Origin: Brachyspira murdochii DSM 12563 | GTDB taxonomy: Bacteria > Spirochaetota > Brachyspiria > Brachyspirales > Brachyspiraceae | Assembly: GCF_000092845.1 (NCBI RefSeq) | Contig: NC_014150.1 | Coordinates: 2,913,510-2,977,509 of the forward strand | Direction of reading: 5' to 3' | DNA length: 64,000 nt | Shown: in pieces, positions 27,446-32,039 of the stretch | Layout: each line of letters begins with the position of its first letter | How positions within the stretch are numbered: the stretch's first letter is position 1 | The notes under the pieces: model-generated | What the model was told of the DNA's origin: nothing | The model's input: only the letters and a program-made list of their open reading frames with translations | Database searches by the model: none | Translations under genes and position numbers: made by a program

Positions 27446-28663
27446 TTAATTATAAATTATCTCTTTTCCTATAAACTTATCAGTAAATATAGCATTATCA
27501 TATACTTTATTTCCGCGTACTATAGTAGTTAATACTTTACCGCCTCTATTAAAACCTATATAAGGAGACCAGCCTGATTTAGTAATTATATCTTTCTCTT
27601 CTATTATAGAATTGTCTTTCATATCTATTATTACTAGATCTGCGTCATAATTTTCTTTTAACATGCCTTTATTTTTTATACCAAATATTTTTGAAGCATT
27701 TTCGCTCATAATTTTGGTTAATAATTTTAAATCCATTGTGCTGTCATTTACTTTATTTAGCATTAGTTCTAATGAATGCTCTACAGAAGGCACTCCGAAA
27801 GTAAGTTTTTCCAACTTTTCACTTATCAAATGAGGGGCATGATCAGTTCCTATTGTATCTATTGTGTAATCTAATATTGCTTTTAACAATGCTTTATTAT
27901 CAGATTTTTCTCTTAATTCAGGCTTCATTCTCAAAAGCATTTTATTTTTTTCATTTTTATTAACATCTTCAGTATTTAAAAATAAATGATGAGGAGTTGC
28001 CTCTCCATAAATCACCATTCCAGAATCTTTTGCTCTTTTTAGCGAATTGATTTCACTTTCCAATGATATATGACATAAATATAATGGTGTTTTTGTTTTT
28101 TTAGCTATTTCTATTGCTTTATCAGCCATTTTATCTTCTGCATGTACTGTAACTATTTTAGAACTTTCAAATAGCTTTTCTAATATTTTATCATCTTCTA
28201 CAAGCATATTTCCAGTAGAGGCATTAAAAAATATTTTTGTAGATGCTGCATCATTAATAATATTTTTTATATCATCACTGTTATCTGCTTTGCTTCCGCC
28301 GAAATGAAAACCATAATCAACATAAGATTTTCCTATCATCATATTTTTTTTGGCAATTAGATTTTCTTTTGTTATAGTGTTTGGTATAGTATTAGGCATA
28401 TCCAAAAAAGAAGTAACTCCGCCCCTTGCTGCAGCCTTGCTTCCAGAATTAAAATCTTCTTTTTGAGTAAGACCGGGATCTCTCATATGAACATGAGGAT
28501 CTATTATACCTGCAATCACATAATTATAGTTAGCATCTATTATATCTTTATCTTTATAGTTTTGAAAATTATTATCAAAATCTATTTTTTTTATTTTTTC
28601 ATCTTTTATTATGATGGAAACTATATTGCTGCTTTCTATTATTTTAGCATTTTTTATTATCAT
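27446..28663 (-). CDS. pyrC: Dihydroorotase
   Basis: A 405-residue type I dihydroorotase of the amidohydrolase fold, cyclising carbamoyl-aspartate in UMP synthesis. The metal-binding DPHVHMRDPGLTQKEDF lies near 56-72. GGVTSFLDMPNTIPNT follows, HAED and LCHIS carry further metal-binding His residues, and GTDHAPH (near 274-280) contains the catalytic Asp. An AAGGC motif precedes the ATG. It lies 100 bp downstream of pyrB on the same strand and may be co-transcribed, though a TATAAT box also lies just upstream of its own start. Confidence 0.95.
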   Translation of the reverse strand: MIIKNAKIIESSNIVSIIIKDEKIKKIDFDNNFQNYKDKDIIDANYNYVIAGIIDPHVHMRDPGLTQKEDFNSGSKAAARGGVTSFLDMPNTIPNTITKENLIAKKNMMIGKSYVDYGFHFGGSKADNSDDIKNIINDAASTKIFFNASTGNMLVEDDKILEKLFESSKIVTVHAEDKMADKAIEIAKKTKTPLYLCHISLESEINSLKRAKDSGMVIYGEATPHHLFLNTEDVNKNEKNKMLLRMKPELREKSDNKALLKAILDYTIDTIGTDHAPHLISEKLEKLTFGVPSVEHSLELMLNKVNDSTMDLKLLTKIMSENASKIFGIKNKGMLKENYDADLVIIDMKDNSIIEEKDIITKSGWSPYIGFNRGGKVLTTIVRGNKVYDNAIFTDKFIGKEIIYN

Positions 28664-28763: not shown

Positions 28764-29843
28764 TTATTTTCCTATTTCTCTATTACAGTAGTAGCAGAAA
28801 TCTCCGTAACTTCTTTTTGCTACTTTATTTTTTGTCTGTTCAAAGTGAGTAACACATTTGCCATTAGTACAAACCATTTCTTTATTTTCTACTACTTCAT
28901 AGTCTATTTCTTTTCTTTTTGCTTTTGACTCTATTATTCCAGTAGCAAGTGCAAGCATAGCCATTCTTGTAGGAACTCCGTTTCTAGCCTGTACAAAATA
29001 TTTAGCATATTTAGTATCATCTAGATCTATATTAATTTCATCTACTCTTGGAAGAGGGTGCATTATTATCATATTATCTTTGCATTTTCCTTCTATATCT
29101 TTTCTTGATATATTAAAAGCATTTTTTACTTTTTCGTACTCATTAATATTATCAAATCTTTCTTTCTGTATCCTTGTCATATATAAGCAGTCTATATCTT
29201 TTAATATCTCTTCATAGCTGTTAAGTTTTTTATATTTTATTTTAGCTTGGTCTAATTCTTTTAATATATAATCAGGTATTTGTATAATATCAGGTGAAAC
29301 AAAGTAAAGTTCTCCATTAAACATTTTCAAAGCTTTGGATAATGAATGAACAGTTCTTCCATATTTTGTATCCCCAACAAAAGCTATTTTTTTATTTTCA
29401 ATACTTCCAAGTTCATCTCTTAAAGTGTATAAATCAAGTAGCGTTTGGCTAGGGTGTTCATTAGAGCCGTCTCCAGCATTTATAACAGGGCATTTTGTAA
29501 CTTCTTCTGCGAATTTGGCAGCACCGTCTATATTATGACGCATAACTATAATATCAGAATAAGCAGAAACCATTATAAGAGTATCTCTCAAAGATTCTCC
29601 TTTCATTATGGAGCTTTTATCTGGGTTGTCAAATCCTAATTCTTTACATCCCATTCTGTAAGCTGCTGAAGTGAATGATAATCTTGTTCTTGTGGAAGGT
29701 TCAAAGAATATGCTGGTCATAATTTTACCGTCCATAATTTTTCTTCTTTCATCACTATCAGTGTTATCCAATTTTTTAGCTGTGTCTAATACTTCAATAA
29801 TTTCCTCTTTTGATAACTCTTTGATGGATATAAAGTTTTTCAT
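28764..29843 (-). CDS. pyrB: Aspartate carbamoyltransferase with fused PyrI-type zinc domain
   Basis: A 359-residue protein. Residues 1-310 are a complete catalytic chain: IFFEPSTRTRLSF (carbamoyl-phosphate site), GDGSNEHPSQTLLDLYTL, FVGDTKYGRTVHSL, MTRIQKERF and HPLPRVDEI. Residues 311-359 add a zinc module with Cys at 325, 330, 350 and 353. The C-x4-C and C-x2-C spacings equal those of the E. coli regulatory chain PyrI (Cys 109, 114, 138, 141). The nucleotide-binding allosteric domain of PyrI is absent. It is preceded by a leader ORF with an embedded terminator (29882-30034), so expression is probably controlled by attenuation rather than the enzyme by CTP/ATP allostery. Confidence 0.95.
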   Translation of the reverse strand: MKNFISIKELSKEEIIEVLDTAKKLDNTDSDERRKIMDGKIMTSIFFEPSTRTRLSFTSAAYRMGCKELGFDNPDKSSIMKGESLRDTLIMVSAYSDIIVMRHNIDGAAKFAEEVTKCPVINAGDGSNEHPSQTLLDLYTLRDELGSIENKKIAFVGDTKYGRTVHSLSKALKMFNGELYFVSPDIIQIPDYILKELDQAKIKYKKLNSYEEILKDIDCLYMTRIQKERFDNINEYEKVKNAFNISRKDIEGKCKDNMIIMHPLPRVDEINIDLDDTKYAKYFVQARNGVPTRMAMLALATGIIESKAKRKEIDYEVVENKEMVCTNGKCVTHFEQTKNKVAKRSYGDFCYYCNREIGK

Positions 29844-29881
29844 TGTTGCTCCCTTAAAAATAATTTATGATAATAGTTTTT

Positions 29882-30034
29882 TTATTTTGGAATAAAAAAA
29901 AGGAATAAAATTGTTAAAGATAACAACTTTATTCCTTGATTTTTAAAAAATTCCAAATTCGTTAATTTAAACAAATCAATAAAACAGGGTAATAAATAAA
30001 AAATAATCTTATGCTCTAAAAATATATTTTTCAT
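29882..30034 (-). CDS. Putative pyrB leader peptide (50 residues)
   Basis: On the minus strand a 50-codon ORF starts at ATG 30034-30032, with AGGA ending 7 nt upstream, and ends at TAA 29884-29882, 38 nt before the pyrB ATG. It begins MKNIFLEHKIIFYLLPCF and is rich in Phe, Leu and Ile, encoded by U-rich codons. The 17-bp terminator hairpin lies wholly inside the ORF, near its 3' end. This is the layout of the E. coli pyrBI leader (a 44-residue peptide), where a ribosome close behind a UTP-starved RNA polymerase prevents terminator formation. The sequence shows the ORF and hairpin; the mechanism is inferred by analogy. Confidence 0.6.
   Translation of the reverse strand: MKNIFLEHKIIFYLLPCFIDLFKLTNLEFFKNQGIKLLSLTILFLFFIPK
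29893..29937 (-). terminator. Attenuator terminator in the pyrB leader
   Basis: On the minus strand AAGGAATAAAGTTGTTA (29937-29921) pairs over 17 bp with TAACAATTTTATTCCTT (29916-29900), with one G/U wobble and a four-base TCTT loop. A run of T residues follows immediately. It lies between the pyrB promoter and the pyrB start codon and inside the leader ORF, as expected for a conditional terminator. Confidence 0.85.
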
Positions 30035-30065
30035 ATTAATTCCTGCTTTGTCTCAAATTGAATAG

Positions 30066-30093
30066 ATTATATCATGAGCATTAAAAAAATCAA
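30066..30093 (-). promoter_or_regulatory. Promoter of the pyrB leader transcript
   Basis: On the minus strand TTGATT (30093-30088), a 16-nt spacer and TATAAT (30071-30066). Predicted start near 30058, about 24 nt before the leader ATG. It is divergent from the dxs promoter at 30124-30151. Confidence 0.65.
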
Positions 30094-30182: not shown

Positions 30183-32039
30183 ATGTATTTAGAAGAAATA
30201 AATAGTCCAATTGATTTAAAAAAATTAACAGCAGAAGAATTGAAAATTTTATCATCTGAGATAAGAGAGTTTTTGATAAATAATGTTTCCAATACTGGAG
30301 GACATTTAGGAAGTAATTTAGGCGTAGTAGATTTAACTATCGTACTTCATTATTTGTTTTCTTCTCCGAGAGATGCTTTTATATTTGATGTTGGTCATCA
30401 GGCTTATACGCATAAAATTCTCACTGGAAGAAAAGACCGATTTCATACATTAAGGAAATACGGCGGACTTTCTGGATTTCCTAAAAGATGTGAGTCTGAA
30501 CATGATATAGAAGAAACAGGACATGCCTCTACTTCATTATCATTTGCTTATGGGCTTGCTTGTTCAAGAAACATATTAGGTCTTAAAGGTGATGTTATAG
30601 CTATAATAGGTGACGGAGCTATGACCGGCGGTATGGCTCTTGAAGCTATGAATAATATTGCAAATACTGACACTGATATAATTATAGTATTAAATAATAA
30701 TGAAATGTCTATAGGTAAAAATATAGGAGCTATATCAAAGTTTTTAAATACAACTTTAAATGATTCTTTAGTTCAGGAGGCTTCAGAAAAGGTTAGAGGA
30801 TTAGTTTCAAGCCTTCCTTTCGGAGATATTGCAAACGAGTTTATAGACAGAGGTAAAGGTGCTATTAGAACTTTTGTTGCTCCCGGTATAGCTTTTAGAG
30901 AGATGGGATTTAAATATTTCGGTCCTGTTGACGGACATGATTATGATGATCTTATAAATACTTTTCAGAAGGTAAAATCTATAAGAGGCCCGAGACTTGT
31001 TCAGGTTAATACAGTTAAGGGAAAAGGCTATAAAATAGCTGAAGAAAATCCTTCCAAATTTCATGGAATAGCTCCTTTTAATGTAGAAACTGGAGAACTA
31101 AAGACAAAACAAGAATCAAAAACCTTTTCTGCCCTTGCAGGCGAATGTATTGTAAACGCTGCAAAAGAAAATAAAAATATCGCAGCAATAACTGCCGCAA
31201 TGGAATCTGGAACAGGATTAACAGAATATGCCAAAATGTTTCCGGACAGATTCTTTGATGTAGGGATAGCAGAGCAGCATGCGGTAACATTTGCTGTAGG
31301 GCTTGCTGAAAGCGGTATAATACCTTTTGTTTGTTTATATTCTACATTTCTTCAAAGGGCATATGATCAGGTTATTCATGATGTTGGTATTATGAATGCT
31401 AATGTTAAACTTATGATAGATAGAGCTGGACTTGTACCAGAAGACGGAGATACTCATCAGGGGGTATTTGATGTATCTTTTTTGAGAATTGTCCCAAATA
31501 TTACTATTATGGCTCCTATAGCAGAAAAAGATTTTAGAAGTATGGTAAAAAAAGCTGTAGAATATAATGGACCTGTTGTTATAAGATATAATAAATCATC
31601 TGTAAGGGAATTAAAAAATGATGAAGTATTAGATGATATAGAAATAGGAAAAGCATATATTCTTAGAGAAGATAAAAAGAATAATAATGTTATAATAAGC
31701 TATGGTCAGACTCTTATTGATATAACAGAAGCAGCTGATGAACTTAATACAGATTTTACTATTATTAATCTTTCTACTTTAAAACCTTTAGATGAAGAGA
31801 CTATTTTAAAGTACATAAAAAAAGCTAATAAAGTTTTAATTATTGAAGAGGCTTTGGAGGCAGGAGGAATTGGAAGTGCTGTATTAGAATTATTAGCAGA
31901 TAATGATATATATATACCTGTCAAACTTCATGCATTGCCTAATAAATTTTTTGAATCAGCAGCAAGGTCTGAGCTTTTGAAAATGTATAAACTTGATAAA
32001 GACGGATTAAAAGAAATGATAAAAAGTTATTTTTTATAA
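30183..32039 (+). CDS. dxs: 1-deoxy-D-xylulose-5-phosphate synthase
   Basis: A 618-residue thiamine-diphosphate enzyme making DXP from pyruvate and glyceraldehyde-3-P, the first step of the MEP isoprenoid pathway that supplies UppS. Motifs include GGHLGSNLGVVDLTIVLHY, DVGHQAYTHKILTGR, the ThDP motif GDGAMTGGMALEAMNN (about 142-157), the transketolase segment DVGIAEQHAVTFAVGLA with the catalytic Glu, and DRAGLVPEDGDTHQGVFD. Full length for the family (about 620). Start ATG 30183 has AAGG upstream. Its 3' end overlaps the convergent HD-GYP-like gene by 6 bp. Confidence 0.96.
   Translation: MYLEEINSPIDLKKLTAEELKILSSEIREFLINNVSNTGGHLGSNLGVVDLTIVLHYLFSSPRDAFIFDVGHQAYTHKILTGRKDRFHTLRKYGGLSGFPKRCESEHDIEETGHASTSLSFAYGLACSRNILGLKGDVIAIIGDGAMTGGMALEAMNNIANTDTDIIIVLNNNEMSIGKNIGAISKFLNTTLNDSLVQEASEKVRGLVSSLPFGDIANEFIDRGKGAIRTFVAPGIAFREMGFKYFGPVDGHDYDDLINTFQKVKSIRGPRLVQVNTVKGKGYKIAEENPSKFHGIAPFNVETGELKTKQESKTFSALAGECIVNAAKENKNIAAITAAMESGTGLTEYAKMFPDRFFDVGIAEQHAVTFAVGLAESGIIPFVCLYSTFLQRAYDQVIHDVGIMNANVKLMIDRAGLVPEDGDTHQGVFDVSFLRIVPNITIMAPIAEKDFRSMVKKAVEYNGPVVIRYNKSSVRELKNDEVLDDIEIGKAYILREDKKNNNVIISYGQTLIDITEAADELNTDFTIINLSTLKPLDEETILKYIKKANKVLIIEEALEAGGIGSAVLELLADNDIYIPVKLHALPNKFFESAARSELLKMYKLDKDGLKEMIKSYFL

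What the first reader, a model, noticed from the sequence alone, without database searches (positions are those of the whole stretch)
29882..30093. pyrB leader built like the E. coli pyrBI UTP-sensing attenuator
Seen: on the minus strand, in order, a promoter (TTGATT, 16 nt, TATAAT), an AGGA site, a 50-codon ORF with U-rich codons, a 17-bp hairpin with T-run lying inside the ORF, the ORF stop 24 nt beyond the hairpin's T-run region, then the pyrB Shine-Dalgarno and ATG. Known: in E. coli pyrBI a leader peptide overlaps the terminator and low UTP slows polymerase at U-tracts so the ribosome blocks the hairpin. Inference: the same logic operates here, with pausing at the T-rich stretches upstream of the hairpin. 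Most bacteria outside the enterics use PyrR or PyrB-independent control, so this would be an independent or rarely noticed case in a spirochaete. Caveat: T-tracts are common at this base composition.
Basis: partly seen in the sequence, partly recalled or inferred. Interest (0 to 1): 0.78.

Follow-up and report, generated by a model that had tools for sequence, protein, structure and literature searches.

The report
Translated attenuator controlling pyrimidine gene pyrB
In the gut spirochaete Brachyspira, the gene that starts pyrimidine synthesis (pyrB) is preceded by a conserved off-switch hairpin lying inside a tiny translated gene, arranged as in the classic E. coli UTP-sensing switch and also found in Fusobacteria, so this textbook circuit is probably used well outside the enterics.

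Summary
On the minus strand, upstream of a pyrBC operon, lie TTGATT-16-TGATATAAT, an AGGA site, a 50-codon ORF and a 17-bp hairpin with T8 inside that ORF. Of 82 divergently transcribed genes sampled from this genome, pyrB alone has such a leader terminator. In 24 Brachyspira genomes the leader ATG, its Shine-Dalgarno site and an ORF reaching the hairpin are conserved: 0 stops in 680 codons, against 82 and 44 in the other frames; pN/pS is 0.21. The stem covaries. The frame inside the hairpin and the ORF's end are not conserved. The best explanation is translation-coupled, pyrimidine-responsive attenuation working like E. coli pyrBI. The start site carries a conserved AATTT, the E. coli pyrBI initially transcribed sequence used for UTP-dependent slippage. 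The carA leader has the same plan, and the pyrKD leader a looser version. The pyrB and the same plan are shared with Fusobacteriales, so this is not an isolated spirochaete invention. PyrR protein is present, but no known PyrR RNA element was found. UTP dependence, pausing, slippage and start sites are unmeasured. It is a new member of a known kind, outside the enterics.

The parts
30066..30093 (-). sigma-70-type promoter TTGATT-16-TATAAT with extended -10 (TGA TATAAT)
   Evidence: conserved in 24 Brachyspira genomes
30055..30059 (-). AATTT at the predicted start site: AATTT in 23/24 genomes, ATTT in 24/24; candidate site for UTP-dependent slippage
   Evidence: background 1 of 153 promoter-like sites; same letters in E. 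coli pyrBI
30041..30044 (-). leader Shine-Dalgarno AGGA
29882..30034 (-). leader ORF, 50 codons: MKNIFLEHKIIFYLLPCFIDLFKLTNLEFFKNQGIKLLSLTILFLFFIPK
   Evidence: 0 stops in 680 codons over 24 genomes against 82/672 and 44/669 in other frames; pN/pS 0.21
29991..30007 (-). conserved U-rich tract (ATTATTTTTTATTTATT), candidate RNAP pause region
   Evidence: pausing itself not tested
29945..29950 (-). T6 tract 7-13 nt before the hairpin, candidate pause region
29900..29937 (-). intrinsic terminator hairpin, 17 bp, loop UCUU
   Evidence: covariation: 5 pairs with changes on both sides, 0/500 shuffles reach the covariation score
29894..29901 (-). terminator T-run (8 T; first two pair in the stem)
29849..29855 (-). 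pyrB Shine-Dalgarno AAGGGAG
28764..29843 (-). pyrB, aspartate carbamoyltransferase (359 aa) with PyrI-like Cys-x4-Cys / Cys-x2-Cys tail
27446..28663 (-). pyrC, dihydroorotase, 100 bp downstream (probable pyrBC operon)

Best explanation
The leader is a translation-coupled transcription attenuator of pyrBC that works like E. coli pyrBI. A short leader ORF is translated while RNA polymerase transcribes U-rich sequence ahead of a terminator that lies within or at the end of that ORF. When UTP is plentiful, polymerase outruns the ribosome, the hairpin forms and transcription stops before pyrB. When UTP is scarce, polymerase slows in the U-rich tracts, the ribosome closes up and covers the hairpin's ascending arm, and pyrBC is expressed. 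A second UTP layer is likely at the start site: AATTT, as in E. coli pyrBI, could cause reiterative addition of U when UTP is high. Shown here: the architecture, translation of the leader as judged by its evolution, the covarying hairpin, and conservation of the start site. Inferred: termination in vivo, pausing, UTP as the signal, and slippage.
For: Leader ATG, Shine-Dalgarno site and an ORF open into the hairpin in 24/24 genomes. 0/680 stops in frame against 82/672 and 44/669 in the other frames. pN/pS 0.21 in frame against 0.55 and 1.13 in the other frames. Hairpin 95% paired, with covariation beyond all 500 shuffles. The terminator is read away from the divergent upstream gene, so it cannot end that gene, and leader terminators are otherwise absent in the sample. 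Leader peptide U demand lies in the top 1.2% of genome windows. ATTT is invariant at the start site, background about 1-2%. No PyrR RNA element in 26 genomes and no consistent antiterminator pairing. The same plan, with a covering or abutting ORF, precedes carA (0/442 stops against 84 and 56) and, more loosely, pyrKD. Ribosomes at stops near a terminator repress it (PMC4824070). The pyrBI mechanism and its U-requiring leader are described in PMC10135430.
Against: No expression, 3'-end or UTP data exist here. U-richness follows from the peptide and is not beyond intergenic norms. The carA leader is not U-rich (T 0.29-0.38), though a short T-tract precedes its hairpin in most species. PyrR protein is present. 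The spacing from the -10 to the first A of AATTT is 6 nt, against 7 in E. coli, so the start site could be the second A.
Confidence: 0.75

Rival explanations
1. PyrR-mediated attenuation: UMP-bound PyrR binds the leader RNA and favours the terminator, as in Bacillus; the leader ORF is secondary.
For: A PyrR-like protein above the NCBIfam cut-off occurs in 22 of 26 genomes.
Against: No RF00515 element in any of 26 genomes, although that model rings in only 3 of 14 controls. No consistent antiterminator pairing with the hairpin's 5' arm. The gene is solitary, far from the pyr operons. It does not explain why the leader ORF is kept open and translated.
Confidence: 0.1
2. Peptide-sensing attenuation: the conserved hydrophobic leader peptide stalls the ribosome in response to a ligand or an amino acid, and stalling rather than polymerase pausing sets the outcome.
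For: The peptide is under purifying selection (pN/pS 0.21) and its U-richness is fully explained by its residues.
Against: No run of one amino acid. The C-terminal half and the frame in the hairpin vary between species. carA and pyrK leaders encode unrelated peptides. No alternative RNA structure for a stalled ribosome to switch.
Confidence: 0.1
3. Only start-site slippage (AATTT) regulates pyrB in response to UTP; the terminator merely sets a fixed fraction of read-through.
For: ATTT invariant in 24/24 at the start site.
Against: Does not explain the conserved translated ORF reaching the hairpin. Fusobacteriales keep ORF plus terminator without AATTT at the start.
Confidence: 0.04
4. A chance or non-regulatory ORF and hairpin in AT-rich DNA.
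For: A single leader has a 4-11% chance of being open by shuffling; T-tracts are common.
Against: Conservation across 24 species in one frame only, with covariation.
Confidence: 0.01

Closest known systems
E. coli pyrBI (pyrL) UTP-sensitive attenuator
   Same: Leader ORF with Shine-Dalgarno site overlapping an intrinsic terminator just before pyrB; U-tract ahead of the hairpin; TATAAT followed by CAATTTG in both; no antiterminator found.
   Different: No sequence relationship of leaders; PyrB proteins lie far apart in the tree. Here the ORF usually stops within or shortly after the hairpin, while E. coli pyrL runs to 3 nt from pyrB. Hairpin is AU-rich. No separate pyrI gene seen next to pyrB. 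UTP response unmeasured.
Fusobacteriales pyrB leader (found here; no report found)
   Same: Shine-Dalgarno site, U-rich leader ORF ending in the hairpin, GGAAT...ATTCC stem with T-run; PyrB 56-68% identical.
   Different: Often GTG start, stronger GGAGG site, no AATTT at the start site.
E. coli pyrE attenuator (rph as leader ORF)
   Same: The leader ORF may end at or just before the terminator, as in Brachyspira pyrK leaders (from memory for pyrE).
   Different: The leader is a full gene in E. coli; here it is a short ORF.
PyrR/RF00515 attenuators (Bacillus)
   Same: pyr terminator in the leader; PyrR protein encoded in the genome.
   Different: No PyrR RNA element in 26 genomes; translated ORF instead.

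Membership tests
pyrBI-type UTP-sensitive attenuators | intrinsic terminator between promoter and pyrB | tested here: met
pyrBI-type UTP-sensitive attenuators | translated leader ORF that reaches the terminator | tested here: met
   24/24 genomes, 0/680 stops, pN/pS 0.21
pyrBI-type UTP-sensitive attenuators | U-rich sequence ahead of the hairpin | tested here: met
   T 0.44-0.53 against CDS 0.315; E. coli pyrL 0.34 by the same measure; not beyond intergenic range
pyrBI-type UTP-sensitive attenuators | RNAP pausing and read-through depend on UTP | not testable with these tools
   needs in vitro transcription or reporters
pyrBI-type UTP-sensitive attenuators | no antiterminator or dedicated RNA-binding protein needed | tested here: inconclusive
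   no consistent antiterminator, no RF00515, but PyrR protein present
UTP-dependent reiterative initiation (pyrBI promoter) | A then at least three T in the initially transcribed sequence, about 7 nt from the -10 | tested here: met
   AATTT 23/24, ATTT 24/24; start site not mapped
UTP-dependent reiterative initiation (pyrBI promoter) | slippage products at high UTP | not testable with these tools
   needs transcription assays
Homologue by descent of the E. coli pyrBI leader | shared ancestry of leader or pyrB | tested here: not met
   E. coli PyrB outside the Brachyspira/Fusobacteriales group; model R1 finds nothing in the E. coli locus
PyrR attenuators (RF00515) | PyrR RNA binding element in the leader | tested here: not met
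   model sensitivity limited (3 of 14 controls ring)

The most novel reading that the evidence does not exclude
Brachyspira runs a whole pyrimidine regulon (pyrBC, carA, pyrKD-FE) by leader-peptide-coupled terminators plus slippage-prone initiation at pyrB, with no role for its PyrR in attenuation. The pyrB attenuator is one element shared with Fusobacteriales, moved together with the gene between phyla or inherited from a common source, while its resemblance to E. coli pyrBI, including AATTT, is convergent.
Probability: 0.4. Interest if true: 0.72.

Novelty: new member of a known kind. Interest (0 to 1): 0.6.

Why it matters
UTP-sensitive, translation-coupled attenuation is a textbook circuit known mainly from enteric bacteria. 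A genus-wide case in spirochaetes, repeated in part at carA and pyrKD and shared with Fusobacteriales, would show that the circuit is widespread, can travel between phyla with its gene or arise repeatedly, and can coexist with PyrR. It would also imply tight transcription-translation coupling in Brachyspira and Fusobacteria, where I know of no direct evidence.

Tried and rejected
PyrR RNA element: none. Antiterminator in the leader: 5' arm pairs upstream only weakly and with no shared partner. A Shine-Dalgarno-sequestering helix (AGCAGG with CCUGUUUU) seen in the window's fold: read by eye on the alignment, it is broken in several clades, so dropped. U-enrichment by synonymous codon choice: not supported (mean z 0.5). 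Attenuators at the pyrE gene and at uracil permeases: no leader terminator. Architecture as a general spirochaete trait: among 40 pyrB upstream regions from other spirochaete families, only G075 and G026 show an ORF overlapping a terminator close to pyrB (a first attempt, mis-set the starts). Homology of the Brachyspira and Fusobacteriales hairpins by covariance model: suggestive only. pyrB leaders match at E 1e-5 to 0.05 in most of the fetched loci, but genome-wide the pyrB hairpin is not the best hit in every Fusobacteriales genome. Key primary papers (Turnbough and Switzer 2008; Han and Turnbough 2014; Shin 2020) were not held.

Full report
WHERE IT IS. The window lies in a 3,241,804-bp single-contig genome of the genus Brachyspira. 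Its pyrB is 99% identical to that of B. innocens ATCC 29796 and 85% to that of B. hampsonii. pyrB (28764-29843) and pyrC (27446-28663) lie in tandem on the minus strand. The upstream gene, 1-deoxyxylulose-5-phosphate synthase by its sequence, is divergent (30183-32039), so a minus-strand terminator between them cannot belong to that gene.

OBSERVATION. The stop codon ends 18 nt past the hairpin, not 24. The hairpin is the only terminator-like site in 800 bp (0.1 expected), and the leader folds with z = -5.2. In 464 kb sampled from the genome, 82 genes are divergent with a gap of at least 100 bp; only pyrB has a leader terminator, while 18 of 68 convergent gene ends have one by the same detector.

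CONSERVATION. pyrB was found in 24 of 26 Brachyspira genomes, and the leader is present in all 24. The ATG is invariant, a Shine-Dalgarno site precedes it, and the ORF stays open into the hairpin in every species. From the ATG to the hairpin the leader frame has 0 stops in 680 codons; the other frames have 82 in 672 and 44 in 669. Over the first 16 codons of 18 distinct sequences, pN/pS is 0.21 in frame, 0.55 and 1.13 out of frame, and third positions vary most (permutation p = 0.02). The leader is therefore translated, or was until recently. The hairpin is 95% paired over 15 distinct rows, with five pairs changed on both sides; none of 500 shuffles reaches its covariation score, and slid versions fall to 46-62% paired.

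WHAT IS NOT CONSERVED. The frame in which the ribosome reads the hairpin differs between species (IKLLSLTIL in some, NKVVIFNNF in others), and the stop lies anywhere from 12 nt into the ascending arm (L009) to beyond the T-run. The start is conserved; what matters mechanistically is that a ribosome can reach the ascending arm, and that holds in all 24. Experiments with another terminator show that a ribosome at a stop a few bases upstream represses it, and that the effect ends beyond about 27 nt (PMC4824070).

START SITE. Between the -10 and the Shine-Dalgarno site, the only fully invariant run is ATTT at positions 8-11 after the -10; AATTT is present in 23 of 24. Among 153 promoter-like sites in the sample, AATTT occurs at this position once. 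E. coli pyrBI has TATAATGCCGGACAATTTG. [quoted passage not shown] for carAB, interrupting the run of three T abolishes it, and an initial A and the -10 spacing matter (PMC6245113). A slippage layer is thus likely here, but the start site is unmapped and the spacing to the first A is 6 rather than 7.

U-RICHNESS. T content of the leaders is 0.44-0.53 against 0.315 in coding windows (1.5% reach 0.47), but 16% of intergenic windows reach it. Given the peptide, codon choice adds nothing (mean z 0.5), while the peptide's own U demand lies in the top 1.2% of the genome. U-richness is necessary for the model, not proof of it.

OTHER pyr OPERONS. carA has a conserved terminator about 50 nt upstream and a leader ORF with 0 stops in 442 codons, against 84 and 56 in 433 in the other frames, over 21 genomes. 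In most carA leaders a small CTGC-N7-GCAG hairpin followed by a T-tract precedes the terminator. The pyrKD operon, which precedes fused pyrFE, has in 14 genomes a terminator with a longer or interrupted stem and an ORF whose ATG lies exactly 8 nt after the -10, so it may be leaderless; the ORF ends 25 nt before to 48 nt after the hairpin start. In G000 it runs through the hairpin. For pyrK the other frames are not clearly worse (13, 18 and 15 stops), so that case is weaker. pyrE itself and uracil permeases show nothing.

PyrR. A PyrR-like protein above the curated cut-off is present in 22 of 26 genomes, away from the pyr operons in G000, but no RF00515 element was found (the model rings in only 3 of 14 control genomes). 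No consistent antiterminator was found. PyrR control remains the chief rival.

RELATIVES. Among 40 pyrB upstream regions from about 20 other spirochaete families, only G075 and G026 have an ORF overlapping a leader terminator close to pyrB. Outside the phylum the closest PyrB found was in a Cetobacterium metagenome-assembled genome (59%). A search of 96 genomes of its order, Fusobacteriales by inference from that label, gave PyrB up to 68% identical, against 55% for the best other spirochaete. Of the 30 best loci, 27 have a Shine-Dalgarno-led ORF ending in or near a GGAAT/ATTCC-type terminator. In the 24 that could be scored automatically the ORF has 1 stop in 824 codons, against 78 in 818 and 97 in 804 in the other frames (the start was picked as the Shine-Dalgarno-anchored codon with the farthest stop, which biases this test somewhat). 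A maximum-likelihood tree joins Brachyspira and Fusobacteriales PyrB with 100/99 support apart from four other spirochaetes, E. coli and an archaeon. Sampling of other phyla is thin, so direction and donor are open. A covariance model of the Brachyspira hairpin finds the pyrB leader as the best hit in all six Brachyspira genomes searched; in Fusobacteriales it is the top hit in some genomes but not all. Common origin of the RNA element is suggested, not shown.

MECHANISM. Most likely: high UTP lets polymerase outrun the ribosome and terminate; low UTP slows polymerase in the U-rich leader, the ribosome covers the ascending arm, and pyrBC is transcribed. This is the E. coli pyrBI logic (PMC10135430; PMC5021804). 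Architecture, leader translation and hairpin are supported here by comparative evidence; termination, pausing, UTP sensing and slippage are inferred.

NOVELTY. No paper in the held library reports pyrB attenuation in Brachyspira, and the searches for spirochaetes and Fusobacteria brought none. The library lacks most subscription journals, and a wide attenuator survey there does not mention spirochaetes (PMC2965389). It works like pyrBI; it is not a homologue by descent of the E. coli leader. I rate it a new member of a known kind, with above-average interest because of its spread, the parallel start site and the coexisting PyrR.

Noticed in passing
L064-L084, about 50-165 nt upstream of carA (G000:C1 near 2804020): carA has its own conserved leader ORF (MIWKKFKLKK... 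type) overlapping a strong terminator, in most cases preceded by a small CTGC-N7-GCAG hairpin with a T-tract; 0/442 stops in frame.
   Followed up: yes
L143-L161 except five, upstream of pyrK (L152: pyrK at 2192): The pyrKD-FE leader ORF begins exactly 8 nt after the -10 in 14 of 14 aligned genomes, so it may be a leaderless leader peptide, and it ends near or in a terminator with covarying stem.
   Followed up: partly
L216-L245 (order of Cetobacterium), 20-190 nt upstream of pyrB: Fusobacteriales pyrB leaders have a Shine-Dalgarno-led, U-rich ORF ending inside a terminator; PyrB groups with Brachyspira.
   Followed up: yes
window 28764-28930 (-): PyrB ends in a PyrI-like zinc motif (VCTNGKCVTHFE...FCYYC; E. 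coli PyrI has VCPNSNCISHAE...KCKYC) without the PyrI nucleotide-binding domain.
   Followed up: partly
G000:C1:2212935-2213453 (L001 1363-1890 -): A solitary PyrR-like protein gene away from all pyr operons; role unknown where no PyrR RNA element is found.
   Followed up: partly
G001, G002, G018, G020: Four Brachyspira genomes have pyrB but no carA hit over the family cut-off (G020 is an incomplete, contaminated assembly).
   Followed up: no
L163 (G075), 37-114 nt upstream of pyrB: Another spirochaete family has a 22-codon ORF (MKRFNWKLLDFFGYKLNKPFYF) ending inside a leader terminator, with a T6 tract about 20 nt before it.
   Followed up: no
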